DNA from: Borborobacter arsenicus
GTDB taxonomy: Bacteria; Pseudomonadota; Alphaproteobacteria; Rhizobiales; Rhizobiaceae
Length of the DNA: 37,814 nt
NCBI RefSeq assembly: GCF_003934165.1
Contig: NZ_RKST01000035.1
Span: forward strand, 1 to 37,814
Reading direction: 5' to 3'
Every line of letters begins with the position of its first letter. Position 1 is the stretch's first letter. Positions 20,032-32,944 of this stretch are shown here, in pieces. Under the pieces are notes generated by a model. The model worked only from the letters and a program-made list of their open reading frames with translations, was not told the origin of the DNA and did not search any database. A program made the translations under genes and the position numbers.

Positions 20032-20832
20032 CTAAATGTGCGCGGGGCTTCCATTCAATGCGGCGAGCCAGGCGAGGCCTGCCTCCGTGTCGCCGGCCGG
20101 CACGTATTCGCAACCGAGGCGACCGCGATAACCGATTTCAGCGAGCATCCCGCCGATCCGGTCGAAATCAAGCGAGCCCGAACCGGGCTCGTGGCGGCCT
20201 GGATAGTCTGCGATATGCACATGGGCGATGAGGCCAGCATGAGTCCTGATCTCTTCGAAAATATCGAGACCCATATTGGCAGTGTGGAAGATGTCGAGGA
20301 GCAGGCCGAGATTGGTGCCGCCGGCTGCAGCGATCGCGGCAGCAGCGCGGTTAGCCGTATCGATGAAATAGTCGGGCACAGCGCCGGCGCTCATCGCCTC
20401 AATGAGGATGGTAATGCCGCGCTTGCCCGCCTCGCCGGCGGCATAGGCCAAGTTTTCCACATAGCAGTCCCAATGTTCCTGTTTGCGGTTCGCTGCGGGC
20501 AAGACGCCCGCCATGGCATGCACCATGCCCACGCCAATCGCCTCGGCATAGTCCAACCCGTCCTCGACGCTGCGGCGAAATTCCTCGCGCCGCTCGGGGA
20601 AGATCGCCAACCCCTTCTCACCGCGTTGCGCGTCGCCGGAATACAGCCCGAACTGCGTGTAGGGCAGACCTTCGGCCCGGAGCCATTCTGCCATTTCCTG
20701 TGCCGGAACACCGTAGGGCGCTGGATACTCGACCGCCGAGAACCCGTGGCGTTTTGCGGCTGCAATGCGCTCGCGCAACGGCTTGTCAGTGAACAGGTAG
20801 CCAATATGGGCGCTATAGGGGAAGTCTGACAT
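20032..20832 (-). CDS. otnI: Hydroxypyruvate isomerase-family TIM barrel (OtnI-like)
   Basis: A 266-residue sugar-isomerase TIM barrel of the Hyi/OtnI family. OtnI converts 2-oxo-tetronate to 3-oxo-tetronate in threonate/erythronate breakdown; Hyi interconverts hydroxypyruvate and tartronate semialdehyde. Metal ligands line up as Glu145 (TILIEAMS), Asp180 (GLLLDIFH), His206 (HVHIADYPG) and Glu242 (GCEYVPAG), with the same spacing as in Hyi, where the third ligand is Gln. PGRHEPGSG is the usual family signature. Otn-type function is preferred because the kinase and decarboxylase of that pathway lie in the same cluster. It follows the M24 gene after 63 bases in the same operon, and GGAG precedes its ATG. 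Confidence 0.82.
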   Translation of the reverse strand: MSDFPYSAHIGYLFTDKPLRERIAAAKRHGFSAVEYPAPYGVPAQEMAEWLRAEGLPYTQFGLYSGDAQRGEKGLAIFPERREEFRRSVEDGLDYAEAIGVGMVHAMAGVLPAANRKQEHWDCYVENLAYAAGEAGKRGITILIEAMSAGAVPDYFIDTANRAAAAIAAAGGTNLGLLLDIFHTANMGLDIFEEIRTHAGLIAHVHIADYPGRHEPGSGSLDFDRIGGMLAEIGYRGRLGCEYVPAGDTEAGLAWLAALNGSPAHI

Positions 20833-20895
20833 CGTCCGCTCCGCCAGGGTTCCTGAAGTACAGATACTGGTGGACGGCGCCGTACCGTCCGCATT

Positions 20896-22104
20896 TCACC
20901 GGCCCGCGATGTTCCAGCCGCGACCATGGTCGCCGAAGCCTTCGCAACCATCCTTCGTGATCGCCACCGTATCCTCCAGTTTGATGAAGCCGCGCTTGGT
21001 GTGATGCAGCTCCGTCTCGATGGAGACGACCATCCCCTCTTCCAGCGGCAGGTTGCGGTGGTGGGCCGGATAGTTCGGGAAAGCATTGTTCATAAGCCAC
21101 GGCGCTTCGTGGCTCACAATGCCCATGCCATGAGCCATGAAGAACATCTGGTCCTTGGCCGGGCACTGGGCCAGGGCAGCGTTGGCGTTCTCGAATATCC
21201 CGGCTCCGATCGTACCGGGGCGCAGGTTGCGGCGAGCTGCCTGCTGGACGAGTTCAATCTGACCGAGCAGGTCCACCAGTTCCTGATCCGGTTCCGTGGT
21301 GTAGGCCATGCGGCAAAGGTCGCCGATATAGCCCTTGTAGTTGCCGCCCGAATCGAGGGCCAGCGTCTCGCCTTCCTCCCAGATCTTGTCGTAGGGCGCA
21401 CGGTTGAATGCGGTGCCGATGTTGGTCAGCGCATATTCGAACTTGAGGTCGCGCGCCGTCTCTTCCTGACGCAGCGCCTCAAACAGCGCGCGCTTGCTCA
21501 CGCCGGGACCGTGCTTGGAGATGACGGCCAGCATGGAATCGACCACCTTCTCCGAAGCTTCGCGAATGATGGCCAGCTCCGCAGGAGTCTTGAGCGCACG
21601 CAGGATCTCGAGCGTGTAGGTGCCGTCCACTATTTCGGCCTGCGGCAGTTCCTCCTCAAGGACGCGGTAGGCGTCGATGGGCATGAAGCCCACTTCGATG
21701 CCAATGCGTCCCCGGCCGCCACCCAGGCTCTTCAGCAACTCGGCGGCGGACTTGGCGTAAGCCTTGGCAAAATGGTTCTTCAGGTCGAGGTTGGAAACCC
21801 AGAATTTGCCGAGCTGCTTCTCGTAGCGCTCCATCGGCGCACCGACATAGCCGGAATCCAGCGGCCGGCCTTTCACATAGATGAAGAAGGGCAGATAGCG
21901 GCTCAGCCCATGCGCATCCATGTAATCGTAGAAGAAGAACCGGTAGCCGCCCAATAAGTATTGGATGCTGTGCTTGGAGGTGACCAGGAGAGCATCCAGC
22001 GTCGCCTCCTCCATCAGTCGATCCAGGCGGCCGGTGTCGAATGGAGGCTTGTGCAGCTTCGAGGTATCCTCGACCGGGTTGCCTTCAGAATATGCGAAGC
22101 TCAT
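20896..22104 (-). CDS. M24-family metallopeptidase (creatinase/Xaa-Pro type)
   Basis: A 402-residue pita-bread-fold protein. An N-terminal creatinase-like domain (about 20-165) precedes the M24 catalytic domain (about 172-395). The five metal ligands are present: Asp251 (LALDSGGNYKG), Asp262 (IGDLCR), His325 (MAHGMGI), Glu363 (SIETEL) and Glu377 (KLEDTV). So it should bind a two-metal centre and cleave a C-N bond, as in aminopeptidase P, prolidase or creatinase. It shares an operon with the OtnI-like isomerase. An operator-like dyad lies about 107 bases upstream of the start. A peptidase-fold enzyme in an acid-sugar cluster hints that the substrate arrives as an amide or N-linked conjugate, which is inference. 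Confidence 0.88.
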   Translation of the reverse strand: MSFAYSEGNPVEDTSKLHKPPFDTGRLDRLMEEATLDALLVTSKHSIQYLLGGYRFFFYDYMDAHGLSRYLPFFIYVKGRPLDSGYVGAPMERYEKQLGKFWVSNLDLKNHFAKAYAKSAAELLKSLGGGRGRIGIEVGFMPIDAYRVLEEELPQAEIVDGTYTLEILRALKTPAELAIIREASEKVVDSMLAVISKHGPGVSKRALFEALRQEETARDLKFEYALTNIGTAFNRAPYDKIWEEGETLALDSGGNYKGYIGDLCRMAYTTEPDQELVDLLGQIELVQQAARRNLRPGTIGAGIFENANAALAQCPAKDQMFFMAHGMGIVSHEAPWLMNNAFPNYPAHHRNLPLEEGMVVSIETELHHTKRGFIKLEDTVAITKDGCEGFGDHGRGWNIAGR

Positions 22105-22202
22105 TGATCTGCCTTTGATGATTATTTGAAACCCAGCGAAACAGGCTCGCTTTGATCTCCATCATTCTTGAATCGCCTGCCGAATCAATCAGTTACTTGA
22201 CG

Positions 22203-22219
22203 ATTTACCGATGTGAAAA
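22203..22219. promoter_or_regulatory. Putative IclR operator upstream of M24 gene
   Basis: ATTTACCGATGTGAAAA matches the TTTTCAC-NNN-GTGAAAA dyad at 11 of 14 arm positions and is 15/17 identical to the site upstream of gnd. It is centred about 107 bases before the M24 start. The right arm is perfect and the left arm degenerate. Confidence 0.5.
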
Positions 22220-22301
22220 TCCGTGCATTGAGAGCCTGTGCGCGTCGGGAAATCGACTCTCGCTTCCCGGCATCGGGGTTCTCCTTCCTTTGCCACTGAA
22301 C

Positions 22302-22340
22302 GCCAGCAGCCATGACGCCGGCGGCGCCATGGCTGCTGGC
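22302..22340 (-). terminator. Strong hairpin after tctA
   Basis: A perfect 13-bp stem (GCCAGCAGCCATG / CATGGCTGCTGGC) with a 13-base loop lies 18 bases beyond the tctA stop. It separates the transporter operon from the M24 operon. There is no T-run. Confidence 0.6.
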
Positions 22341-22357
22341 AAATCAAGCAGGATGGA

Positions 22358-23851
22358 TCAAGCTGACACGGCCTGCTTTTGCCGTTGCGCCCTGACCATG
22401 CCCACGACCTGAAGGACGACAACGAGCAAGGACAGGCCGAAGAAAAAGAGCGAGATCGGCGACAGGAGGATCGTTGCATTGTCGCCGGACATGATCATTG
22501 CTGTCCTCAGTTCGCGCTCCATAATCGGACCCAGCACCAGGCCGAGCAGGATTGGCGTTAGCGGAACCCGCGCCTTTTGCAGGAGATAGCCGATCAGCCC
22601 CACCACAACCATGGCGCCGATATCGAACATGGAGTTGCGCAGGGAGTATGACCCGACGACACACAGCACCATGATCGCCACCGCCAGCAGATGATGGGGA
22701 AGCTTCAGTGCCTGCACGAATACCTTGACCCCGAACAGCATTGTTAGCGTGACAAGCACATAGGACAGGCCAAAGAAGAAATAGATGCTGTAGACCGTTT
22801 CCGGCTGTTCAATGAAAAGCAGCGGGCCAGGTTGGATGCCGTGGACGAGCAGTCCGCCCAGGATCAGCGCAGTTGCCGGATCTCCCGGAATGCCGAGCCC
22901 GAGCATCGGGATCATCGCCCCGCCCGTGACCGCATTGTTTGCGGTCTCGGGCGCAACCACACCCCCCATCTCACCCTTGCCCCAGCGTTCCGGATTGCGT
23001 GCCAGACGCTTCTCTTGCGCATAGGCGATGAAGGCCGCGACGGTGCCGCTGGTCCCCGGTATTGCGCCGATGACGGTACCAAGAAGGCTCGATCGCAGAA
23101 GGTTCCAGCGGAAGCCCAGGATATAGCCCAGGCTTGGCAGTTCCACCTTGACCGATTTGCTCTCGACGGCAGTGCCATTCCTGTGAGTTGCCAATGCGTC
23201 GACTACCTGCGGGACGGCAAACAGGCCGATCATGGCGACGAGCAGGTCCACGCCCTGCAGGAGTTGGACATTGCCGAAGGTCAACCTCGATACGCCGTCG
23301 ATGGGATCCTGGCCGATGGTCATGACCATGAGGCCGATCACGCCGCCGATAAGCCCTCGCACAAGGGACTGCTCAGCAAGGCCGCATATCATGGCCATCC
23401 CGAAAACCACGAGCGCGAAAATCTCCGCCGGCCCAAACACAAGCGCCACCTCGGCCAGGAACTTGACCGAAAAGACCATCACGACAAGGCTGAAGATGCC
23501 ACCCAACGTGGAGGAGATCGTCGCCATGGCGATTGCAAGACTAGCCTTGCCTGATTTGGCTAGCGCGTGGCCATCGCTCACCGTCGCGGCAGAAGACGGC
23601 GTTCCCGGAACCCCGATGAGAATGGCAGCCACCGTTCCTCCGCTTGCTCCACCGATATAGGTGGATATGAGCATCGCGATCGCCATCATGGGATCCAGCG
23701 TGAAGGTCAGCGGCAGGATCAAGGCCAGCGCCATAGTGAAGGTCAGGCCCGGAATACATCCGAATGCAAGCCCGAAAAGGCTGCCTATGACGAGGGCCAA
23801 AAGCGACTGGGGTTGAAAGGCCAGAACAGACGCGGTGATAAATGCGTCCAT
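22358..23851 (-). CDS. tctA: Tripartite tricarboxylate transporter, TctA large permease
   Basis: A 497-residue inner-membrane protein of the TctA family with about 11-12 hydrophobic segments. It is the main translocation subunit of a secondary, binding-protein-dependent carboxylate importer. Family motifs are clear: GCIPGLTFTMALALILPLTF, then IGVPGTPSSAATVSDGHALA near residue 80, and the repeat copy GAIPGTSGTVAAFIAYAQEK with GLGIPGDPATALILGG in the second half. Its ATG is one base after the tctB stop, so translation is coupled. The operon order is tctC-tctB-tctA on the minus strand, ended by a strong hairpin. Context points to a sugar acid as substrate. Confidence 0.95.
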   Translation of the reverse strand: MDAFITASVLAFQPQSLLALVIGSLFGLAFGCIPGLTFTMALALILPLTFTLDPMMAIAMLISTYIGGASGGTVAAILIGVPGTPSSAATVSDGHALAKSGKASLAIAMATISSTLGGIFSLVVMVFSVKFLAEVALVFGPAEIFALVVFGMAMICGLAEQSLVRGLIGGVIGLMVMTIGQDPIDGVSRLTFGNVQLLQGVDLLVAMIGLFAVPQVVDALATHRNGTAVESKSVKVELPSLGYILGFRWNLLRSSLLGTVIGAIPGTSGTVAAFIAYAQEKRLARNPERWGKGEMGGVVAPETANNAVTGGAMIPMLGLGIPGDPATALILGGLLVHGIQPGPLLFIEQPETVYSIYFFFGLSYVLVTLTMLFGVKVFVQALKLPHHLLAVAIMVLCVVGSYSLRNSMFDIGAMVVVGLIGYLLQKARVPLTPILLGLVLGPIMERELRTAMIMSGDNATILLSPISLFFFGLSLLVVVLQVVGMVRAQRQKQAVSA

Positions 23852-23852
23852 G

Positions 23853-24347
23853 TCAAATCCCCAATACGATCAGGCCCGATGGCAGATAGACGCCAAGCAG
23901 GCTGCTCATGAGCAGATACAATCCAAACCCGAGCCCGATTGACATCGCCCCGATCACGGCAGGTGAGCGCTCTTTCAGGACTGTCACGAGGAAAACCGCG
24001 ACCGCGAGAATCGTGGCCAGAGTGAAGCCCAGAATATACGTGGCGATGACGTAGAAAATCAGGAAGCCGAATGTGGCCAGTGCGGCCCAAATCTCTCGGG
24101 CCATGCCTCCCTTGTCGGGCATCTCGACGACCTTTTCCCGACGATGCTTGCGCTCCACGCCAAGCAGGCCGATCAGGGCGAGGCCCGACAACAGAACGCC
24201 CAGCGTTACAGGAAAGGTTCTTGGGGAAATATGCGACCCCGAATATCCGTTCGGGATCGTCACTACCGAGGCGATCACCCAGGCAACGCCCACCACGAAG
24301 AGGGTGATGAACAGCAGCCTGTCGCGTAGGATGCTCGTCATCGCCAT
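23853..24347 (-). CDS. tctB: Tripartite tricarboxylate transporter, TctB small permease
   Basis: A 164-residue membrane protein with four hydrophobic segments, as in the TctB family. It partners TctA in the membrane and is poorly conserved in sequence, so the call relies on size, topology and position between tctC and tctA. The N-terminal helix (LLFITLFVVGVAWVIASVV) is followed by a loop with PRTFPVTLGVLLSG, a pattern common in TctB. The gene starts two bases after the tctC stop. An ATG at the third codon is an alternative start. Confidence 0.9.
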   Translation of the reverse strand: MAMTSILRDRLLFITLFVVGVAWVIASVVTIPNGYSGSHISPRTFPVTLGVLLSGLALIGLLGVERKHRREKVVEMPDKGGMAREIWAALATFGFLIFYVIATYILGFTLATILAVAVFLVTVLKERSPAVIGAMSIGLGFGLYLLMSSLLGVYLPSGLIVLGI

Positions 24348-24349
24348 CC

Positions 24350-25303
24350 CTACCTGTTGTTCATGCCGAGTTTTGACATCAGATCACTGATAACGGCATC
24401 GTCCTTTGCAATAAGTTCGCCGAACTCCTGCGCCGGCAGATAGGCGGGCGTAAAGCCGAGATTGACCACGGTTTTCTTGAATGCCGCGCTTTCAACGGCC
24501 TGCTTGGCGGTTTCCTCAAGCTTCTCGACGACTTCCGGCGGCGTGCCGGCTGGAGCGACCAGGCCGCGCCACATCGTGATGTTCATTCCCTTAGCGCCAG
24601 CCTCCGCGCAGGTAGGAACGGCACCTTCCGCCTCGATCTTCTCAATGCCGGTCGAGCAGACCAGCGTGAGCGTGCCATTGCGCACATGCGACTGGAACTG
24701 GCTCGGCCACTGGATGGCCACATCCACGCGCCCTGCCAGCAGTTCGGCCGGTGCACGTCCCTCACCATAAGGAACATAGACGACCGGGACCCCGAGCTGG
24801 TTGAACAGTGCTGCCGATACCAGATGGGTAAAGGAGCCCAACCCCGAAACGCCCACACGCAGCGGAGTGCCGCGCTGCTTGGCACCAGCGGCGAGCGCCT
24901 CAAGCGTATTCCAACCGCTGTTCGACCGCACGGCGACCACCGGCACTTCGACGCCCACACGGGCGATCGGCGTGAACGCCTTGTAATCGAAAGGCAGGTT
25001 GCCCTGATAATAGACGGTCGAAATGGAATTTGAGTTCCAGACGATATTGTAGCCATTTGCTTCTGTCGCCTGGGCATAGCTGTAGCCAACCGCGCCGCCG
25101 CCGCCCGGCCGGCTCACCGCAACCACCGGCTGCGAGGAGAGCTTGGACATTTCCTCTGCCAGGACCTGGCCAACGGTCTGAGCCGATCCACCGAACAGGA
25201 TCGTCATTTCGATCGGGTGCTGCGGAAAATCAGACTGTGCCTGGGCCACGCCTGCTGCGGCACAAAGCGCCACCCCGGCCAGCATCGTTGTATAGTTTTT
25301 CAT
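24350..25303 (-). CDS. tctC: TctC/Bug periplasmic substrate-binding protein
   Basis: A 317-residue periplasmic binding protein of the Bug/TctC family. The signal peptide is MKNYTTMLAGVALCAAAGVA, cleaved near AQA. The mature protein begins with FPQHPIEMTILFGGSAQTVG, and the family signature VVAVSRPGGGGAVGYSYAQA follows. A carboxylate ligand is normally held through water-mediated contacts in the first-domain loops. The ribosome binding site is excellent (AAGGAGGAG before ATG 25303). It heads the tctCBA operon, just beyond the terminator of the dehydrogenase gene. No copy of the operator dyad was seen in its upstream region, so control may differ from the other units. Confidence 0.94.
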   Translation of the reverse strand: MKNYTTMLAGVALCAAAGVAQAQSDFPQHPIEMTILFGGSAQTVGQVLAEEMSKLSSQPVVAVSRPGGGGAVGYSYAQATEANGYNIVWNSNSISTVYYQGNLPFDYKAFTPIARVGVEVPVVAVRSNSGWNTLEALAAGAKQRGTPLRVGVSGLGSFTHLVSAALFNQLGVPVVYVPYGEGRAPAELLAGRVDVAIQWPSQFQSHVRNGTLTLVCSTGIEKIEAEGAVPTCAEAGAKGMNITMWRGLVAPAGTPPEVVEKLEETAKQAVESAAFKKTVVNLGFTPAYLPAQEFGELIAKDDAVISDLMSKLGMNNR

Positions 25304-25425
25304 TTTCTCCTCCTTGCTTCATCAACCCAAAACCGCCGCGGCACTGGCGCCACACCTCCCTTGGTTCCGGCCACGAAGTTTGTGCTGATCTATTTTGGCG
25401 TTCCTGCTCCGGTCCACAAATGATT

Positions 25426-25451
25426 AAGCCGGCGCTCGAAGGCGCCGGCTT
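25426..25451 (-). terminator. Terminator between dehydrogenase and tctC
   Basis: A perfect 10-bp stem (AAGCCGGCGC / GCGCCGGCTT) with a 6-base loop lies nine bases beyond the dehydrogenase stop. It is followed on the minus strand by a TTAAT run-out. It should end the dehydrogenase transcript. Confidence 0.8.
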
Positions 25452-25459
25452 TGCAAAAG

Positions 25460-26623
25460 CTATTCCGCAGCCTTGAGCTGGCGTGCGGCGTGCTTGTTCT
25501 TGACCACGACCTTGATTGCATCCTCGACGCGCTCCCTGGCATAACGCAACGCCTCCGGCAAATCTTCCATGTCGAAAGTATGAGTGTGGATGAGGGTGGC
25601 GTCGAAGCGCTTCTGGCGCATGAACGCCTCGGCGCGATGGGTCGCCGACTTGCCCTCGCCGCGGATGCCGTAGAGATAGATGTTGTTGCGCACCAGATAG
25701 GCCACGTCGATCGGCACTTCCTCGCTGGGGAAGGCGGCCAGGCAGATCTTGCCGCCGCGGTTGAGCATCTGGGCGGCCTCGTTGACCGCGTTTGGCGCAC
25801 CCGAGCATTCCACCACGAAATCGACACCCTTGCCGCCGGTCAGCTTGCGTACCGCCTCGACGACATTCTCCTTGCGCACATTGATGACGTGGTCTGCGCC
25901 GAGCCGCTTGCCGATTTCGAGGCGGTTGTCGCGGGTTCCTGTGAGGATGACCGGTTGTGCGCCGAGCGCCTTGGCGACCGCCGCGCCGAGCAGGCCGATC
26001 GGCCCCGGTCCGCTGACCACGACCGCATCGCCGGCAATCAGGCCGCCGAGCTCGGTGAGACCATACATGGAGGTTCCCGCCGTGACGACCAAAGTCGCTT
26101 CCTCGTCGCTCATCGAATCGGCGACATGAATCAGCGTGTTGACATTGTTGACCTGATATTCGCAGAAGCCGCCATCGGTGGTGAAGCCGTTGGCGCGATG
26201 CCCCTTATCGACATCGCCGTAATTCTTGCCGTAGTTGTGGCAGGAGGTGTACATGCCTTGGCGGCAGCGCTTGCACTGGCCGCAACCGGCATGGATCTCC
26301 ACCGTCACCCGGTCACCGATGGCGAATTCATCGACACCCGGGCCGAGCGCCACCACCGTGCCCATGTATTCGTGACCCGGAGTGAAATTCTTGTTGAAGG
26401 GGGCGCCGCCCTGAATCTGCGCCGGCGGACCATGGGAAATGATCTCGAAGTCGGTCGCGCAGATGGCGACTGCATCGATGCGCAGCAGCACCTCGGCCTT
26501 TTTCGGCATTGGGACCGGCTTGCCCACCAGCGTGAGTTGATTTGGATCGCCAAGCACCCAGGCCTTCATCGTCTCCGGAACCGGATAGTCCGGATGGGTT
26601 TTCACATTGTCTGGTTGTGGCAT
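25460..26623 (-). CDS. Zinc-dependent medium-chain dehydrogenase
   Basis: A 387-residue zinc alcohol/polyol dehydrogenase (MDR superfamily). Catalytic zinc ligands are Cys55 (AICATDFE) and His84-Glu85 (TPGHEYMG). The structural zinc lobe is CGQCKRCRQGMYTSC (Cys114, 117, 120, 128). The nucleotide fold has VVVSGPGPIGLLGAAVAKAL. It likely oxidises a secondary hydroxyl of a polyol or sugar acid with NAD(P)+. ATG at 26623 is fixed by GGAGGAGG eight bases before it; the frame is open further upstream but without such a site. It is a single-gene unit with an operator-like dyad about 230 bases upstream and a terminator behind. The long N-terminal extension (about 18 residues) is unusual. Confidence 0.9.
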   Translation of the reverse strand: MPQPDNVKTHPDYPVPETMKAWVLGDPNQLTLVGKPVPMPKKAEVLLRIDAVAICATDFEIISHGPPAQIQGGAPFNKNFTPGHEYMGTVVALGPGVDEFAIGDRVTVEIHAGCGQCKRCRQGMYTSCHNYGKNYGDVDKGHRANGFTTDGGFCEYQVNNVNTLIHVADSMSDEEATLVVTAGTSMYGLTELGGLIAGDAVVVSGPGPIGLLGAAVAKALGAQPVILTGTRDNRLEIGKRLGADHVINVRKENVVEAVRKLTGGKGVDFVVECSGAPNAVNEAAQMLNRGGKICLAAFPSEEVPIDVAYLVRNNIYLYGIRGEGKSATHRAEAFMRQKRFDATLIHTHTFDMEDLPEALRYARERVEDAIKVVVKNKHAARQLKAAE

Positions 26624-26844
26624 TCTGTTCCTCCTCCGCAAAAACGGACTCGACACCCTGACAGAACAGACTGCTCTGCCCTGTCTATTAACTTTGAAAT
26701 TTTCAGGAATTAAGGAATAATTCTTTCTATTCCTCAAATCGTCTTTCTTTTTCTTCTCTGCCGCAAGACGTTTTGCACTACAACGGCAAATAATTCTTGA
26801 AACTATCGCGTGGCCCGGCAAAAGGGTCAACGAGAGAGAAGACT

Positions 26845-26861
26845 TTTTCGCAATATGAAAA
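26845..26861. promoter_or_regulatory. Putative IclR operator upstream of dehydrogenase
   Basis: TTTTCGCAATATGAAAA matches the TTTTCAC-NNN-GTGAAAA dyad at 12 of 14 arm positions, with one more T/A pair on the outside. It lies between the gnd stop (26887) and the dehydrogenase start (26623). The intervening sequence is AT-rich, as expected of a promoter. Confidence 0.5.
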
Positions 26862-26886
26862 ATGATGGGCTGAAACGGCGCTTGGC

Positions 26887-28311
26887 TCAGTCGGCCGGCC
26901 ATTGATGATGATGCGCGCCATGCGCATCCAGGCGGCGGAATGTGTGGGCGCCGAACAGGTCGCGCTGCGCTTGGATGAGGTTGGCGCAGCCACGGGTACG
27001 GCGGTAGTCGTCGAAATAGGCAAGCGAGGCCGACAGCGCGGGAACCGGAATGCCGGCCTCCACCGCCTTTACCACGACACGGCGCAAGGCCTGCTGGGTC
27101 GCCTTCATGCGTCCGGTGAAATAAGGCTCCTGCAGCAGGTTGACCACGGACCTGCCCTCGTCGAAGGCCCTGGCGATGTCCTGCAGGAACACGGAGCGGA
27201 TGATGCACCCGGCGCGCCAGATGCGGGCAATCTCGCCTAGCGGCAGGTTCCAGCCGAATTGCCTCGAGGCCGCCGCAAGGGCGGCGTAGCCTTGGGCATA
27301 GGCGACGATCTTGGCCGCTTCCAGCGCTGCCTCGAGCTCGCCTATCCCCTCCGAACTGTTTTCAAAACCGGCCTGCCTGCAATCCAGATTGCCGTAGATT
27401 TCGCCGGTGGCAAGGCGCTCATGGCGCAGCGCCGAGATTGTGCGTGCCGACACCGCCGCCTCCAGCGTGGTGGCGCCCACGCCAAGCCGCTGCGCGGCGA
27501 TCACCGACCAGCGCCCGGTGCCCTTCTGGCCGGCTTCGTCAATGATGACGTCGACCAGCGCCTCCCTGGTCCGCGGATCGCGCTCGGCAAGCACGATGGC
27601 CGTGATCTCGACCAGATAGGAGGAAAGCCCGCGCCGGTTCCAGTCCGCAAAGATGCGCGCCATGGCGGCGGCCGAAAGGTTGAGCCCGTCGCGCATGATA
27701 CCGTAGATCTCGGCGATCATTTGCATGTCGGCATATTCGATGCCGTTGTGGATGGTCTTGACGAAATGGCCGGCGCCATCCGGGCCGAGCCAGGCAACAC
27801 AGGGGCTGCCTTCATATTCTGCCGCGATCGGTTCGAGCAACGGCTGTAGCCGGCCCCAGACCTTGCGGTCGCCTCCGACCATGATCGAGGGGCCATGGCG
27901 CGCGCCCAGTTCTCCGCCGGATACGCCCATGCCGACGAAATGGATGCCGGTCGGGTCCCAGCGCCGGTTCCTCGCTACAGTGTCGTTGAAGTCGCTGTTG
28001 CCGGCATCGATGACGACGTCACCTTCATCCAGCAGGTGCATCATCGCCTCGAGCTGGGCATCGACCGCCGGGCCCGCCTCGACCATCAGCACGATGACCC
28101 GCGGCGCGCGCAGCGCCGCGACGAGATCCTCGATCGAGGCTTGCGGGTGAAGGCGCTCGCCCAACCCCGGATTATAGGCGCGCAGCTTCTCGGCTTTCTC
28201 AGGCGTGCGGTTGAACAAGGCGACATCCGACCCGTTCTCCGCGAAATTCAGGGAGAGCATTGCCCCCATTGTGCCGAGCCCGATCACACCGAGGTCGCAA
28301 ATCTTCTTCAT
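26887..28311 (-). CDS. gnd: 6-phosphogluconate dehydrogenase, decarboxylating
   Basis: A 474-residue full-length 6-phosphogluconate dehydrogenase, which oxidises and decarboxylates 6-phosphogluconate to ribulose 5-phosphate with NADP+. The Rossmann motif GLGTMGAMLSLNFAENG is at residues 11-27, and FNRTPEK suggests NADP preference. Substrate residues are in GVSGGELGARHGPSIMVGG, the catalytic Lys and Asn in FVKTIHNGIEY, and the C-terminal RDLFGAHTF closes the site of the dimer partner. No gluconate kinase or glucose 6-phosphate dehydrogenase gene accompanies it. Its own operator-like dyad lies about 85 bases upstream. The enzyme may therefore act on a phosphorylated acid made by this pathway rather than in housekeeping metabolism. 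Confidence 0.93.
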   Translation of the reverse strand: MKKICDLGVIGLGTMGAMLSLNFAENGSDVALFNRTPEKAEKLRAYNPGLGERLHPQASIEDLVAALRAPRVIVLMVEAGPAVDAQLEAMMHLLDEGDVVIDAGNSDFNDTVARNRRWDPTGIHFVGMGVSGGELGARHGPSIMVGGDRKVWGRLQPLLEPIAAEYEGSPCVAWLGPDGAGHFVKTIHNGIEYADMQMIAEIYGIMRDGLNLSAAAMARIFADWNRRGLSSYLVEITAIVLAERDPRTREALVDVIIDEAGQKGTGRWSVIAAQRLGVGATTLEAAVSARTISALRHERLATGEIYGNLDCRQAGFENSSEGIGELEAALEAAKIVAYAQGYAALAAASRQFGWNLPLGEIARIWRAGCIIRSVFLQDIARAFDEGRSVVNLLQEPYFTGRMKATQQALRRVVVKAVEAGIPVPALSASLAYFDDYRRTRGCANLIQAQRDLFGAHTFRRLDAHGAHHHQWPAD

Positions 28312-28387
28312 CGCCAGCCCTTACATGCAACTGTTCAGTCGTACAGTTACACCCAGCGCGATTCATCTTAACTATTGTATTTACAGC

Positions 28388-28404
28388 ATTTTACGATGTG
28401 AAAA
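28388..28404. promoter_or_regulatory. Putative IclR operator upstream of gnd
   Basis: ATTTTACGATGTGAAAA matches the TTTTCAC-NNN-GTGAAAA dyad at 12 of 14 arm positions and is centred about 85 bases before the gnd start. A second small dyad (AACTGT, 8 bases, ACAGTT) at 28329-28348 lies between it and the gene. Confidence 0.55.
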
Positions 28405-28461
28405 CCAGGCGGCCGGCTCGTCGGGACTGCTGCTGCCAAGCCGAATTCCGTGTGTCGGCGT

Positions 28462-29319
28462 TTAGACGAAGCAGCCTGCCGGCATGCGGCCGGAAAGCTC
28501 GCGTGCACAATCGACGACGGCATGGGCGACATGGGTGCGATAGGCGTCGCTTGCCCGGCTGCGCGGGATGGTGACCGCGATGGAACAGACGATGGCGCCG
28601 GACATGTCCCGCACTACCGCGCCATATCCCACCATGTCGGCACGGAATTCGCCATCATCCATGGCAAAGCCGGCGCGGCGCACCAGCCGAAGCTCCTCAA
28701 TCAGAGCGCTCAGCGTCGTGATGGTATTGTCGGTGAAGGAGGCGAGCCCGTTATCGGCGACGACGCGGGCAAGCTGCGCCTCGGGCAGCCAGGCCAATAT
28801 CGCCTTTCCGGCAGCCAGCGCATGCACCGTATGCGGCTTGGTATTGTCGCGCAGGTCGAGCTGCGGCTTGATATGCGAGGCGAGCATAATCTGCGCCACC
28901 AGCGCCGAGCCACGCAGCACGCACATCTGGGCTGCCTCGCGCAGATTGGCGTTGAGCTCCTGAAGCTTCGGGCGCACGAATTTCACCAGGTTGAAATCCC
29001 GCGCCGAGCGCTGGGCGATGGCCTCGAGTCCGGAACTGAGCGAATAGCCGCTGCTACGGCCGGCATAGACGACATAACCGCGCTTGACCAACGTGCTGAC
29101 CAGATGATGGCAGGTGGACAGGTTGATGCCCACGAGCTTGGCAATCTCGTTGAGCATAAGCGGCGTGTTGCTGAGTGATAGCGCTTCGAGGATCGAAAGC
29201 GCGCGGTCGACGGACTGGATGCTCTTGCCGCCACTCTTGCCGGTGACCTTGGACGACATCGCATACTGGTTCTGGCGAAATTGGCCATCCCGCCACGCCT
29301 GCTCCTTGACGGCCTCCAT
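28462..29319 (-). CDS. IclR-family transcriptional regulator
   Basis: A 285-residue IclR regulator. Residues about 34-95 form the winged helix (SVDRALSILEALSLSNTPLM, then EIAKLVGINLSTCHHLVSTL as the recognition part, and the wing GYVVYAGRSSGYSLS). The C-terminal effector domain (about 110-275) has the usual HALAAGKAILAWLPE and GFAMDDGEFRADMVGYGAVV motifs. ATG at 29319 has GGAGGAAG before it. It is divergent from the kinase operon, and two near-perfect dyads lie in the shared 321-base intergenic region. It most likely senses a pathway intermediate and controls both directions plus the gnd, dehydrogenase and M24 units. Confidence 0.93.
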   Translation of the reverse strand: MEAVKEQAWRDGQFRQNQYAMSSKVTGKSGGKSIQSVDRALSILEALSLSNTPLMLNEIAKLVGINLSTCHHLVSTLVKRGYVVYAGRSSGYSLSSGLEAIAQRSARDFNLVKFVRPKLQELNANLREAAQMCVLRGSALVAQIMLASHIKPQLDLRDNTKPHTVHALAAGKAILAWLPEAQLARVVADNGLASFTDNTITTLSALIEELRLVRRAGFAMDDGEFRADMVGYGAVVRDMSGAIVCSIAVTIPRSRASDAYRTHVAHAVVDCARELSGRMPAGCFV

Positions 29320-29391
29320 CGGCTTCCTCCATTTCCTCCGGCGATATTGGTAGGAACCGCCCCGGACCTCGTCAATATGCGCACCGGGTGA

Positions 29392-29408
29392 TTTTCACAT
29401 TGTGAAAT
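29392..29408. promoter_or_regulatory. IclR operator, site 1 of divergent region
   Basis: TTTTCACATTGTGAAAT holds a perfect 6-3-6 palindrome (TTTCAC / GTGAAA). It is centred 81 bases upstream of the iclR start, where autoregulation is expected. Confidence 0.7.
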
Positions 29409-29480
29409 TCGCGTCGCGAAGATGCCGCCTGACGCCCGCCTAACCCAAGGGATTGGCCGATAGACGGCACCCTTCGTGCA

Positions 29481-29497
29481 TTTTCACAAGGTGAAAA
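29481..29497. promoter_or_regulatory. IclR operator, site 2 of divergent region
   Basis: TTTTCACAAGGTGAAAA is a perfect 7-3-7 palindrome, the best copy in the window. Its centre is 89 bases from site 1 and about 152 bases before the start of the binding-protein/kinase operon. Confidence 0.72.
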
Positions 29498-29640
29498 ACC
29501 GTTTTGCAACATTGACCTGCCGGCCGCCCGCGCCTGTAATCGGCCTATCCATGGCCGTAAGATAGGACGCCTGCGGGGAGACGGCGCGGCTGCCTTCTGT
29601 CGCTGCAGGCCAAGATAGGAACTGCACGCTAGGAGGGACC

Positions 29641-30348
29641 TTGCCCGACGCTCTCAAAGTCATGAGCACGCTTGCGGTGGCGCTGGCGCTTAAACGCTCG
29701 ATCCTGTTCGCCTGGGAGGCCAGTGGCAGGAAGGTAGACATGCAGTGGAACCCGACCGGGGTACTGGTGGAGCGCGTTCGCGGCGGAGAGCGAGCCGACG
29801 TCATCATCTCCATCGATGAGCCGACGCTGGCACTGGCCGGCGAGGGCGTGCTTTCGGTATCCACGATCCGGCCGCTCGCCCGCGCCGGCTTTGGCCTAGC
29901 GGTGCGGGCCGGTGCGCCGCGCCCCGACATTTCTTCGCCGGAGACCTTCAAGGCAGCGCTGCTTGCTTCGCGCGCCATCGCCTATTCGCTTACAGGCGCC
30001 AGCGGCCTCCATCTCCAGGAAGTGGCGCGGGCGCTCGGTATAGCAGATGAGGTCGAGGCACGCGCGGTGACCATTCCGGCGGGATTCACCGCCGAAAAAC
30101 TGATTTCCGGCGAGGCGGATCTCGCCGTCCAGCAGATCAGCGAATTGATGTCGGTCGAGGGCGTCGACATTGTCGGCCCCTTCCCCGCAGTCTGGCAAAA
30201 GCACACCGACTTTTCCGCCGCCGCCTTCTGCGAGGCCCGTCGACCAGCCGAAGCCCTGGCCTTCATCGACCATCTGGCGAGCCCTGCTTCCATGCAGGCC
30301 TATGCCAATGCCGGACTGGCGCCGCGCGCCGCCGGCACATCTTCATGA
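29641..30348 (+). CDS. Leaderless ModA-like substrate-binding protein
   Basis: A 235-residue protein with the type II periplasmic-binding fold of the molybdate-binding (ModA-like) group. It shows GGERADVIISIDEPTLALA, FGLAVRAGAP, an IAYSLTGASGLHLQEVARAL block that often touches the ligand, and an AVQQISELMSV segment. It starts at TTG, placed by AGGAGG a few bases upstream. There is no signal peptide, so the protein should stay in the cytoplasm. No ABC permease or ATPase is nearby. Its stop overlaps the racemase-like gene by 4 bases (ATGA). A cytoplasmic ligand sensor or carrier role is more likely than transport. Confidence 0.8.
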   Translation: MPDALKVMSTLAVALALKRSILFAWEASGRKVDMQWNPTGVLVERVRGGERADVIISIDEPTLALAGEGVLSVSTIRPLARAGFGLAVRAGAPRPDISSPETFKAALLASRAIAYSLTGASGLHLQEVARALGIADEVEARAVTIPAGFTAEKLISGEADLAVQQISELMSVEGVDIVGPFPAVWQKHTDFSAAAFCEARRPAEALAFIDHLASPASMQAYANAGLAPRAAGTSS

Positions 30349-31025
30349 GTCCGGCCATGTCCAGCAACAAGCCCAGAATTGTCCTTTTCCATGCCACCCC
30401 TGTGGCGATGGACCCGATCAAGACCGCCATGGCCGAACTGTGGCCGCAGGCCGAGCCAGTCAATCTGCTCGATGACGGGCTGACCATCGACCGGGCCAAG
30501 GAAGGCCCGGAAATGTCCGAGGAGCTGATCGACCGCTTCGTCGATTTCGGCCGCTATGCCAGGCGCATAGGCGCCGACGGCATCCTTATCACCTGTTCCG
30601 CCTTCGGGCCGGCCATCGATCGCATGGCGGCCGAACTGCCGCTACCGGTGCTGAAGCCCAACGAGGCGATGTTCCGCGATGCGATTGCCTCGGGCAAGCG
30701 CATCGGCATGCTGGCGACCTTCGCGCCCGCTGTGTCGACCATGGAGGAGGAGTTCCGCCAGTTCACACAGGAGGCGGGTGCTTCGGCCACGCTCGAAACC
30801 ATCGTCGTGCCGGACGCCATCGACGCGTTGCGCAAGGGCGACGCCGCCACCCATAACAGGCTGGTCGCGGAATTTGCCCCTAGGCTCACCGAGCATGACG
30901 CGATCATGCTGGCGCATTTCTCGACCTCGCGCGCGGCGGAAGATGTGCGCCGCGCCGTCGAGCGGCCGGTCTTCACCGCGCCGGAAGCGGCGGTGATGCG
31001 CATGAAAACGCTGGTGGAGGGCTAG
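30345..31025 (+). CDS. Asp/Glu racemase-superfamily protein, one catalytic Cys
   Basis: A 226-residue protein of the Asp/Glu/hydantoin racemase fold. The first half-site cysteine is Cys84 in LITCSAFGPAID. The second cysteine, expected in a VLGCTH-like turn, is replaced in DAIMLAHFSTSRA, so the classical two-base racemisation cannot work. One-cysteine members of the fold include decarboxylases and isomerases. Start ATG 30345 overlaps the preceding stop by 4 bases; the ATG 12 bases later is an alternative. The kinase gene follows after 6 bases. In this operon it may act on an oxidised sugar acid or amino-acid-like intermediate, which is inference. Confidence 0.82.
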   Translation: MSPAMSSNKPRIVLFHATPVAMDPIKTAMAELWPQAEPVNLLDDGLTIDRAKEGPEMSEELIDRFVDFGRYARRIGADGILITCSAFGPAIDRMAAELPLPVLKPNEAMFRDAIASGKRIGMLATFAPAVSTMEEEFRQFTQEAGASATLETIVVPDAIDALRKGDAATHNRLVAEFAPRLTEHDAIMLAHFSTSRAAEDVRRAVERPVFTAPEAAVMRMKTLVEG

Positions 31026-31031
31026 GCCGGC

Positions 31032-32309
31032 ATGCTGCTTGGCGTAATTGCAGACGATTTCACCGGCGCAAGCGACATCGCCAACACGCTGACCCGCGGC
31101 CATAATGGCCAGGGCGGGTTGGCGACGGCGCAATATATCGGCGTGCCCGACCACGACGCGGCGCCGGATGTGGAGGCTGGCGTGGTTTCGCTGAAATCCC
31201 GTTCGGTCCCCGCCGAAGAGGCGGTCGAGCTCTCGCTTGCCGCACTCGCCTGGCTGCAGGCGCAGGGCTGCCGCCAGATCGTCTTCAAATATTGCTCGAC
31301 CTTCGATTCGACCCCTGAGGGCAATATCGGTCCGGTCGGCGAAGCCCTTGCCAAGGCGGTCGGTACCGCTGGTGTCGTCGCATGCCCTGCCTTTCCTGCG
31401 ACCGGGCGGACCGTCTATCAGGGCCATCTGTTCGTGCATGACCGGCTGCTGAGTGAGTCAGGCATGCAGAACCATCCGCTGACGCCGATGACGGATCCCG
31501 ATATCAGGCGCTTTTTGCGCAAGCAAACACAAGACGATGTCGGGCTCGTGCTGGCGGCAACGGTGCATCAGGGCGCAGACGCCATCAAGGCGGCACTGCA
31601 GACAAGTGCCACGCACGGCGAGACGCTGGCGATCGTGGACGCCATCAGCGATGCGGATTTGGCCGAAATCGGCAAGGCCTGCGCCGACGCACCCCTGCTC
31701 ACCGGCGGATCGGGCATCGCGCTTGGCCTACCCGGAAATTTCATTGCGCGAGGCCTCGCCAGCGGCAAGGCGGCCGGCTTTGCGGGAAGACCGGGTCCGG
31801 AGGCCATTCTTGCCGGCAGTTGCTCTGGCGCCACCCGCGGCCAGATCGGCGTCCATGCAAGCAGCCATCCGGTATTGGCGATCTCGGTAGACGATGTGAT
31901 GGCCGGGCGCACCACGGCCGACGACCTCGTTTCCTTCATCACGGCCAATGAGGGCAATGCGCCGCTCGCCTATTCCTCCGCCACGCCCGAACAGGTGGCC
32001 GAGGCGCAGCGCCGCTACGGTCGCGAGGAAGTCGCCGGCCGGCTGGATGCACTCTTTGCCGACACGGCGCGGCGCCTGGTCGATGACGGCGTCAGGCGGC
32101 TGGTCGTCGCCGGTGGCGAAACCTCGGGCGCGGTCGCCCAGGCGCTCGATCTCGGCGACCTCGCCATCGGGCCAGAAGTGAGCCCGGGCGTGCCCGTCCT
32201 CGTCAGCCGGCGGCGCAACATCGCGCTGGCGTTGAAGTCCGGCAATTTCGGCGGCCCCGCCTTTTTCAATGACGCGCTTCGCGCACTGGCAGGAGACATA
32301 AGGTCATGA
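31032..32309 (+). CDS. otnK: Four-carbon acid sugar kinase, OtnK-like (DUF1537)
   Basis: A 425-residue kinase of the DUF1537 family. OtnK phosphorylates 3-oxo-tetronate to 3-oxo-tetronate 4-phosphate with ATP. The N-terminal substrate domain begins with LGVIADDFTGASDIANTL (residues 3-20) and includes FKYCSTFDSTPEGNIGPV near 97. The C-terminal nucleotide domain has VVAGGETSGAVAQAL (about 356) and closes with LALKSGNFGGPAFFNDAL. A PLLTGGSGIALGLP linker joins them. Length is normal. It sits six bases after the racemase-like gene and overlaps otnC by 4 bases. The wider DUF1537 family also covers other acid sugars, so the C4 substrate is the best but not the only reading. Confidence 0.9.
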   Translation: MLLGVIADDFTGASDIANTLTRGHNGQGGLATAQYIGVPDHDAAPDVEAGVVSLKSRSVPAEEAVELSLAALAWLQAQGCRQIVFKYCSTFDSTPEGNIGPVGEALAKAVGTAGVVACPAFPATGRTVYQGHLFVHDRLLSESGMQNHPLTPMTDPDIRRFLRKQTQDDVGLVLAATVHQGADAIKAALQTSATHGETLAIVDAISDADLAEIGKACADAPLLTGGSGIALGLPGNFIARGLASGKAAGFAGRPGPEAILAGSCSGATRGQIGVHASSHPVLAISVDDVMAGRTTADDLVSFITANEGNAPLAYSSATPEQVAEAQRRYGREEVAGRLDALFADTARRLVDDGVRRLVVAGGETSGAVAQALDLGDLAIGPEVSPGVPVLVSRRRNIALALKSGNFGGPAFFNDALRALAGDIRS

Positions 32310-32944
32310 GCCAGGAACAGGAACTGCGCGAGAAACTGGTGCGGATGGGGGCGCTGCTCTACAATCGCCAGCTCGCCCATGGCAGCGCCGGCAATCTCTC
32401 CGTGCGGCTAGATGACGGGTCGATCCTGATCACGCCGACCAATTCGAGCCTCGGCTTCCTCGAGCCGGAACGTATCTCCAAGATCCGCCCGGATGGCGCG
32501 CTCATCGCCGGCGATCCGCCATCGAAGGAATATTTCTTCCATCTGGCCGTTTATGAAGAACGCCCCGCCGCCAGGGCGATCGTGCATCTGCATTCGACCT
32601 ATTCGGTGGCGGTCTCGTGCCTTTGCCATGAGGAGACGGAAGACGTGTTGCCGCCGCTGACGGCCTATCATGTGATGCGCGTGGGCAAGCTGCCGCTGGT
32701 GCGCTATTTCCGACCCGGCGACCGTGCTCTGGCGAAAGCCGTGCGGGAAGCCTCGAAGGACCACCGTGCCATCATGCTCGCCAATCACGGCCCCATCGTC
32801 TCCGGCGCCACCATCGAGGAGGCGGTCTATGCCTATGAGGAGCTGGAGGAGACGGCGAAGCTCTATTTCATCATCGGCGATCGCAAGACTTCGCCCCTGA
32901 AGGCCGAACAGATCGCAGAGATCAACCGCACGTTCTCCAACTGA
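32306..32944 (+). CDS. otnC: Class II aldolase, OtnC-like decarboxylase
   Basis: A 212-residue class II aldolase/adducin-family enzyme. OtnC decarboxylates 3-oxo-tetronate 4-phosphate to dihydroxyacetone phosphate and CO2. Zinc ligands are His94 and His96 (VHLHSTYS) and His161 (LANHGPIVSG); Glu75 (SKEYFFHLAVY) is the probable acid/base. N-terminal GNLSVRLDDGSILITPTNSS makes the phosphate pocket. Its ATG overlaps the otnK stop (ATGA), and it is the last gene of the binding-protein, racemase-like, kinase operon. A terminator hairpin follows 46 bases after its stop. Confidence 0.9.
   Translation: MSQEQELREKLVRMGALLYNRQLAHGSAGNLSVRLDDGSILITPTNSSLGFLEPERISKIRPDGALIAGDPPSKEYFFHLAVYEERPAARAIVHLHSTYSVAVSCLCHEETEDVLPPLTAYHVMRVGKLPLVRYFRPGDRALAKAVREASKDHRAIMLANHGPIVSGATIEEAVYAYEELEETAKLYFIIGDRKTSPLKAEQIAEINRTFSN

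What the first reader, a model, noticed from the sequence alone, without database searches (positions are those of the whole stretch)
22203..29497. Shared operator dyad links five sites into one IclR regulon
Near-identical dyads of the form TTTTCAC-NNN-GTGAAAA stand upstream of four transcription units: two copies between iclR and the divergent kinase operon (29392, 29481), one before gnd (28388), one before the dehydrogenase (26845) and one before the M24/otnI pair (22203). Spacer length is three in all. The right arm is perfect at three sites and one base off at the other two. They occur only in intergenic DNA next to starts, which argues against chance.
Basis: partly seen in the sequence, partly recalled or inferred. 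Interest (0 to 1): 0.8.

Follow-up and report, generated by a model that had tools for sequence, protein, structure and literature searches.

The report
Promoter boxes of one sugar-acid regulon
Five short mirror-image DNA boxes in front of a set of genes for breaking down four-carbon sugar acids are most likely the docking sites of the IclR-type switch protein encoded among them; this is an ordinary kind of bacterial gene control, but three of the boxes keep a fixed distance to the promoter, which suggests the protein turns the genes on.

Summary
The five dyads are real, at the stated places. In the window's genome (5.45 Mb) only 14 sites have at most two mismatches to TTTTCAC-N3-GTGAAAA, and 4 lie within these 2.7 kb. 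A matrix built only from sites in six related clusters ranks exactly these five positions 1-5 in the window. The weakest (22203) barely exceeds a coding site at 1635. Dyads recur before iclR, sbp, gnd and the dehydrogenase in every related cluster whose gap could be read. Before M24 they occur in all three clusters with a tct transporter upstream, window included, and in none of four with dctA. The motif matches a published IclR-family motif type (PMC8222616). New here: the dyad stands exactly 14 nt before TTGA(C/T), the predicted -35, at sbp, adh and M24 promoters (15 of 15), but not at gnd or iclR. A cluster read after the prediction gave 14 at sbp and adh and 15 at M24. That puts the dyad near -58, which fits an activator better than a blocking operator. 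Verdict: new member of a known kind.

The parts
29481..29497 (+). dyad TTTTCACAAGGTGAAAA before the divergent sbp-racemase-otnK-otnC operon
   Evidence: 0 mismatches; PWM 28.3, rank 2 in window; counterpart before sbp in 8 of 8 clusters, window included
29512..29517 (+). predicted -35 TTGACC, 14 nt after the dyad; predicted -10 TGTAAT at 29535-29540 (spacer 17)
   Evidence: offset 14 in 7 of 7 clusters and in the later one
29392..29408 (-). dyad 72 nt before iclR (autoregulatory site)
   Evidence: 1 mismatch; PWM 29.7, rank 1; TTGACG at offset 16
28388..28404 (-). dyad 76 nt before gnd
   Evidence: 2 mismatches; PWM 23.4, rank 4; counterpart in 6 of 6 relatives with gnd next to iclR; no -35-like hexamer at offset 14 in the window
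26845..26861 (-). dyad 221 nt before the zinc dehydrogenase (adh), first gene before tctCBA
   Evidence: 2 mismatches; PWM 25.2, rank 3; counterparts in 6 of 6 relatives with the gap
26825..26830 (-). predicted -35 TTGACC of adh, 14 nt after the dyad; -10 GATAGT
22203..22219 (-). weak dyad 98 nt before the M24/otnI-like pair
   Evidence: 3 mismatches; PWM 18.3, rank 5; counterparts in G242 and G798, the other two clusters with tct upstream of M24; TTGATT at offset 14
28462..29319 (-). IclR-family regulator, 285 aa
   Evidence: Pfam HTH_IclR 53.9 and IclR_C 93.9 bits, above cut-offs; no NCBIfam equivalog cut-off reached
29641..30348 (+). solute-binding-like protein (sbp), first gene of the divergent operon
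   Evidence: Pfam SBP_bac_11 99.8 bits
30345..31025 (+). Asp/Glu racemase family protein
   Evidence: Pfam PF01177
31032..32309 (+). 3-oxo-tetronate kinase OtnK
   Evidence: NF043035 538 bits, cut-off 350
32306..32944 (+). 3-oxo-tetronate 4-phosphate decarboxylase OtnC
   Evidence: NF043034 316.5 bits, cut-off 250
26887..28311 (-). gnd, 6-phosphogluconate dehydrogenase family
   Evidence: NF006765 612.9 bits, cut-off 413
25460..26623 (-). zinc-binding dehydrogenase (adh), Tdh-like, below the tdh cut-off
22358..25303 (-). tctCBA tripartite tricarboxylate transporter genes
   Evidence: Pfam TctC, TctA and TctB
20896..22104 (-). M24 peptidase-fold protein
   Evidence: Pfam PF00557
20032..20832 (-). 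OtnI/hydroxypyruvate-isomerase-like protein, below both equivalog cut-offs
   Evidence: NF043033 237 bits of 325; TIGR03234 261 of 353

Best explanation
The five dyads are binding sites of the IclR-family protein encoded at 28462-29319, which controls its own gene and a local regulon for four-carbon sugar acids (3-oxo-tetronate kinase and decarboxylase, OtnI-like isomerase, dehydrogenase, transporter, gnd). A dimer most likely sits on the dyad about 58 bp before the transcription start, 14 bp upstream of the -35 hexamer, and with its inducer helps RNA polymerase at the sbp, adh and M24 promoters; at its own promoter the same box gives autoregulation. Shown by computation: the sites, their conservation, and the fixed spacing to a -35-like hexamer at three promoter types. 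Inferred: binding, activation, and the inducer (a four-carbon sugar acid or its oxo form). The confidence given is for the whole statement, sign of control included; for the regulon alone it is 0.85.
For: PWM from 19 sites of six relatives, no window site: the five sites rank 1-5 in 37.8 kb and all exceed the maximum (16.7) of 399,680 own-genome background positions. Enumeration of 40,960 dyad types over 19 gaps (3 of them the window's): best TTTCAC-N3-GTGAAA, 18 of 19 gaps with >=10 of 12 matches; the best dyad of each of six resampled sets had at most 3 such gaps. In G242 all 3 genome-wide <=2-mismatch sites lie in the cluster. Dyad-14-TTGA: 15 of 15 sbp, adh and tct-type M24 promoters; over all 21 non-iclR promoters with a dyad, 15 at offset 14 and at most 1 at any other offset from 0 to 59; 3000 shuffles never exceeded 3. 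The intervening 14 nt are only 31% identical among sbp promoters. In the own genome dyad-14-TTGAC at <=3 mismatches occurs only at sbp and adh (2 places; reversed control 1). Prediction written before reading: G798 has 5 sites >=15 in 38 kb, all at the expected places. Motif type and activator precedent: PMC8222616 sections 4, 13; BhcR.
Against: No binding or expression data. The gnd promoters lack TTGA at offset 14 (0 of 6; five have only GAC at positions 3-5 of the hexamer). iclR has its -35 at 16 or 25 (26 in G798), so the rule is not universal. G798's M24 has offset 15, not the predicted 14. Orthologous promoters are not independent: the spacing rests on three promoter types. The sbp core promoter (TTGACC-17-TGTAAT) is good enough that repression is conceivable. 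G798 has the regulator and all five dyads but no racemase, OtnK or OtnC at E <= 1e-5 within the 10.3 kb of contig on the sbp side, so the sugar-acid role of the regulon is not shown there. The background sample covers 0.4 of 5.45 Mb. The coding site 1635 scores 17.8 against 18.3 for 22203.
Confidence: 0.57

Rival explanations
1. Same regulon, but the IclR protein is a repressor: it covers the region just upstream of -35 and keeps polymerase off until the sugar acid arrives.
For: IclR-family proteins include repressors (PMC8222616 section 4; the Salmonella regulator of PMC12445098 is called a repressor in passages seen). The sbp core promoter is close to consensus.
Against: The dyad does not overlap the predicted -35 or -10 at sbp, adh or M24 and keeps a fixed 14-nt distance, as expected for contact with polymerase.
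Confidence: 0.3
2. The dyads are bound by another regulator encoded elsewhere, and the iclR gene is a bystander.
For: Binding was not tested; the genome may hold other IclR-like genes (16 loose first-look candidates, 6 scored).
Against: The motif has the form published for IclR-family WTT-11-AAW sites; two dyads lie between iclR and sbp in 8 of 8 clusters; a related iclR subfamily in other clusters has such a dyad before its own gene (8 of 8 loci examined, scores 16.6-28.8).
Confidence: 0.07
3. Four sites are real, but 22203 before M24 is a chance match. (This can be true together with either sign of control.)
For: 3 mismatches; 92 such or better sites in the genome; coding site 1635 scores almost the same; no site before M24 in 4 of 4 dctA-type relatives.
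Against: A dyad before M24 in 3 of 3 clusters with tct upstream, window included, scores 18.3, 21.8 and 17.4; TTGA at offset 14 in window and G242, 15 in G798; a strong hairpin after tctA in all three, T-tailed in G242 and G798, fits a separate promoter, but strong hairpins without T tail also occur in 2 of the 4 dctA gaps.
Confidence: 0.15

Closest known systems
IclR-family WTT-11-AAW motif subgroup (Suvorova and Gelfand 2021, PMC8222616; abstract, sections 4, 5, 13, 14, 15 and passages seen)
   Same: 17-bp palindrome WTTYCRYW3RYGRAAW; 29392 and 26845 match every position by direct reading, 29481 all but one spacer base; local regulon around the regulator gene
   Different: 28388 and 22203 depart at 2 and 3 positions; the words erythronate and threonate and the labels COG3395 and COG0362 do not occur in the main text; its supplementary tables could not be read, so this group may already be listed there
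BhcR of Paracoccus denitrificans (PMC11323563; passages and section 5 seen)
   Same: IclR-family regulator divergent from its target operon; candidate palindrome upstream of the -35; activator in vivo, autorepression proposed by its authors
   Different: The window protein scores 132.7 bits against a BhcR cut-off of 350; other pathway; several conserved sites here
MhpR of E. coli
   Same: IclR-family protein with a 17-letter motif (PMC8222616 Table 1); that it activates from a site near -58 is recalled, not read (papers not held)
   Different: Aromatic acid pathway; different half-site
VdtR, DeoR-family regulator of erythronate genes in Brucella (PMC10580937, search listing only)
   Same: Controls catabolism of four-carbon acid sugars
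   Different: DeoR family, not IclR

Membership tests
IclR family of regulators | N-terminal HTH_IclR and C-terminal IclR_C domains | tested here: met
   53.9 bits (cut-off 22) and 93.9 bits (cut-off 24)
BhcR / IclR / AllR / KdgR / PcaR-PcaU equivalogs or subfamily | NCBIfam score above the curated cut-off | tested here: not met
   132.7/350, 98.8/380, 56.8/406, 80.8/275, 96.9/284.75 bits
IclR WTT-11-AAW regulon | 17-bp palindrome of that form before the regulator gene and its targets, conserved among orthologs | tested here: met
IclR WTT-11-AAW regulon | the protein binds the motif | not testable with these tools
   no binding data
Tandem-site IclR regulators (centres 18-22 nt apart) | second dyad about 20 nt away | tested here: not met
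   the window's two neighbouring sites are 89 nt centre to centre; a second dyad 20 nt on is seen only weakly in the related subfamily (L039, score 14.6)
Class I type activator promoter | site upstream of -35 at fixed spacing | tested here: met
   sbp, adh and M24 promoters 15 of 15 at offset 14; G798 14, 14 and 15; not met at gnd (0 of 6) or iclR (16 or 25)
Class I type activator promoter | transcription falls without the regulator | not testable with these tools
   needs expression data
3-oxo-tetronate (DUF1537) pathway | OtnK and OtnC above equivalog cut-offs | tested here: met
   538/350 and 316.5/250 bits
3-oxo-tetronate (DUF1537) pathway | OtnI above equivalog cut-off | tested here: not met
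   237/325 bits; OtnI-like only

The most novel reading that the evidence does not exclude
A so far undescribed IclR-type activator ties four-carbon sugar-acid breakdown to the oxidative pentose phosphate genes (gnd here; gnd with zwf, fbp and often fba in relatives), using a fixed dyad-14-(-35) promoter; when the transporter in the cluster was swapped between dctA and tct types, the downstream M24-otnI pair gained or lost its own dyad promoter.
Probability: 0.45. Interest if true: 0.5.

Novelty: new member of a known kind. Interest (0 to 1): 0.36.

Why it matters
It gives a regulator, a site matrix and an explicit activation geometry for a sugar-acid cluster found in scattered Rhizobiales. 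It predicts co-control of sugar-acid catabolism with pentose phosphate genes, and it offers a case of promoter gain or loss beside a swapped transporter. For the field it is an incremental result: IclR proteins with adjacent palindromes are well known.

Tried and rejected
Plasmid search with the IclR protein at E <= 1e-60: no match. Promoter scan alone: 3 sites in 8 kb against 2.2 expected, uninformative by itself, though it contains the adh promoter. A -35 inside the gnd dyad (TTCACA-17-TACAAT in the window) was not seen in the relatives' gnd gaps looked at by eye, so it was not used. Genomes of the same genus as a control for dyads without iclR: 3 of 3 lack both adh (E <= 1e-150) and iclR (E <= 1e-70), so the comparison was not possible. 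Class-wide search for more orthologs at E <= 1e-90: only the window's own genome of 385. Composite pattern at <=1 mismatch in 397 order genomes: 23 genomes hit, among them 3 of the 6 with an iclR homologue at E <= 1e-60; Fisher p 0.003; the other 20 genomes hold one hit each, G275 two. Of these only G366 (L066) was looked at: no IclR gene recognised by eye in its 3 kb. Literature: OtnK+IclR 0 papers, erythronate+IclR family 0, IclR+tetronate 0; DUF1537/IclR/threonate, two of three terms, 10 papers, none of which links an IclR protein to this pathway in the listing or in the passages of the one opened.

Full report
Observation. The five dyads were read directly and found by pattern search. Mismatches to TTTTCAC-N3-GTGAAAA are 0, 1, 2, 2 and 3. 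The window has 7 matches at up to 3 mismatches where 0.72 are expected; the two extra ones, 1635 and 28980, lie in coding DNA. Genome-wide (5.45 Mb) there are 14 sites at up to 2 mismatches, against 25 for the reversed control, 4 of the 14 here, and 92 at up to 3, control 98. So the motif is not common in the genome; its clustering here is the signal. The first four sites stand out by themselves; the fifth does not.

Genes. By NCBIfam and Pfam the units are: iclR; a divergent run of solute-binding protein, racemase-family protein, OtnK and OtnC; gnd; a zinc dehydrogenase followed by tctCBA; and an M24 protein with an OtnI-like isomerase. OtnK and OtnC pass their cut-offs, OtnI does not. The dehydrogenase that would feed the pathway is not identified.

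Comparison. Orthologous clusters (iclR 63-82% identical over matched stretches) came from genome contigs (L021, L022 Falsochrobactrum, L023 Xaviernesmea oryzae, L024, L025; the sixth locus returned, L026, matched only 66 residues and was left out) and from G242. With the window that makes seven. Each has two dyads between iclR and sbp (7 of 7). Each cluster with gnd next to iclR has one before gnd (6 of 6; L023 has no gnd there). Each with the gap present has one before adh (6 of 6; L025 is cut short). Most relatives also carry zwf, fbp and fba in the cluster: L021, L024 and G242 all three, L022 fbp and fba, L023 fba, L025 zwf and part of fbp before its contig ends. None of the three is found in the window at E <= 1e-5.

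Fifth site. Four relatives (L021-L024) have dctA upstream of M24 and no dyad there (best scores -2.2 to -12.7). G242 has tctCBA upstream of M24, as in the window, and a dyad 76 nt before M24. G798, read later, has tct genes there too and a dyad scoring 17.4. So 3 of 3 tct-type clusters, window included, against 0 of 4 dctA-type; L025 ends before M24. The gaps after tctA hold strong hairpins (-39.9, -26.6, -27.8 kcal/mol), with a T tail in G242 and G798 only; two dctA-type gaps also hold strong hairpins (-22.3, -34.6) without T tail.

Independent motif tests. A matrix from 19 relatives' sites puts the five window sites first to fifth; the next is the coding site 1635 (17.8 against 18.3). The maximum over 399,680 background positions of the own genome is 16.7. 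Enumeration of all dyads of 6-mers with spacers 0-9 over 19 gaps gave TTTCAC-N3-GTGAAA first, total 208 of 228, against 158-161 for the best of each of six resampled sets. Three of the 19 gaps are the window's, M24 gaps were left out, and a few gap limits (G242 adh, L024 gnd, L025) were set by hand after the sites had been seen. In G242 all three sites at up to 2 mismatches in the genome lie in the cluster. In three other relatives 3 of 8, 2 of 17 and 3 of 11 do (genomes of L021, L022, L023), so matrix plus position, not the pattern alone, is needed there.

Promoter geometry. Downstream of the dyad, TTGA begins at exactly 14 nt in 7 of 7 sbp, 6 of 6 adh and 2 of 2 M24 promoters, and in 0 of 6 gnd promoters, of which five have only GAC at positions 3-5 of that hexamer. 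The four dctA-type M24 gaps have no dyad and were dropped before this count. Among all 21 no other offset from 0 to 59 has more than one, and 3000 shuffles never gave more than 3. The 14 nt between are not conserved at sbp (31% identity; 50% at adh), and distances from dyad to start codon vary (72-143 at sbp, 121-221 at adh), so the spacing looks constrained. Orthologs share ancestry; the three promoter types are the independent units. With a 17-nt spacer and the -10 at -12 to -7, the dyad centre falls near -58 (arithmetic, assuming a typical start). At iclR the -35 lies at 16 (4 of 7) or 25 (3 of 7). A related iclR subfamily (L033-L040, 41-56% identical) has a dyad before iclR with TTGA 24 nt (6 of 8) or 25 nt (2 of 8) on, roughly one helical turn more (counted by eye).

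Test of a written prediction. Before reading G798 I wrote down what should be there. Five sites scored 15 or more in 38 kb, at iclR, sbp, gnd, adh and M24; the offset was 14 at sbp and adh but 15 at M24, one base off the prediction, and about 26 at iclR by eye. A later look showed that G798 has no racemase, OtnK or OtnC at E <= 1e-5 on the 10.3 kb of contig beyond sbp: the boxes and the regulator are kept there without the kinase genes beside them, so in G798 the link to the oxo-tetronate pathway rests on the OtnI-like and M24 genes.

Mechanism. IclR proteins may activate, repress or do both (PMC8222616 section 4). BhcR, an activator, has a candidate palindrome upstream of the -35 of its target (PMC11323563 section 5). 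The geometry here is of that sort, so I favour an activator, about two to one over a repressor, with the regulon itself much surer (0.85) than the sign of control.

Novelty. The motif type, the protein family and the pathway are known. Searches of the open library found no IclR regulator of this pathway, but supplementary tables of PMC8222616 were not readable and may already hold the group. I file it as a new member of a known kind.

Noticed in passing
1635-1651: A dyad TTTTGCCATCATGAAAA inside a coding ORF scores almost as high as the fifth site (17.8 against 18.3); probably chance.
   Followed up: partly
25426-25451: A hairpin with 10 pairs directly after the adh stop and before tctC; tctCBA may need read-through, and no dyad precedes tctC.
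   Followed up: no
L085:1501-1536 (G242:C50): An exact dyad-14-TTGAC element outside the cluster in G242, before a RidA/L-PSP family gene; possible extra regulon member.
   Followed up: partly
L033-L040: A related iclR subfamily (41-56% identical), in 7 of 8 loci followed by adh, with tct genes farther on, carries the same type of dyad before iclR with the -35 24-25 nt on; in L034 molybdenum-hydroxylase-like genes lie between adh and tctC (by eye).
   Followed up: partly
window cluster 20032-32944: Accessory: 3 of 3 other genomes of the genus lack the adh and the iclR of this cluster at the thresholds used.
   Followed up: partly
L092 (G798:C3:1-10318): G798 keeps the regulator, sbp and all five dyads but shows no racemase, OtnK or OtnC beside sbp.
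   Followed up: partly
L021, L022, L024, L025, G242, G798: Related clusters carry fbp, all but L022 also zwf, and several fba; the window cluster keeps only gnd.
   Followed up: partly
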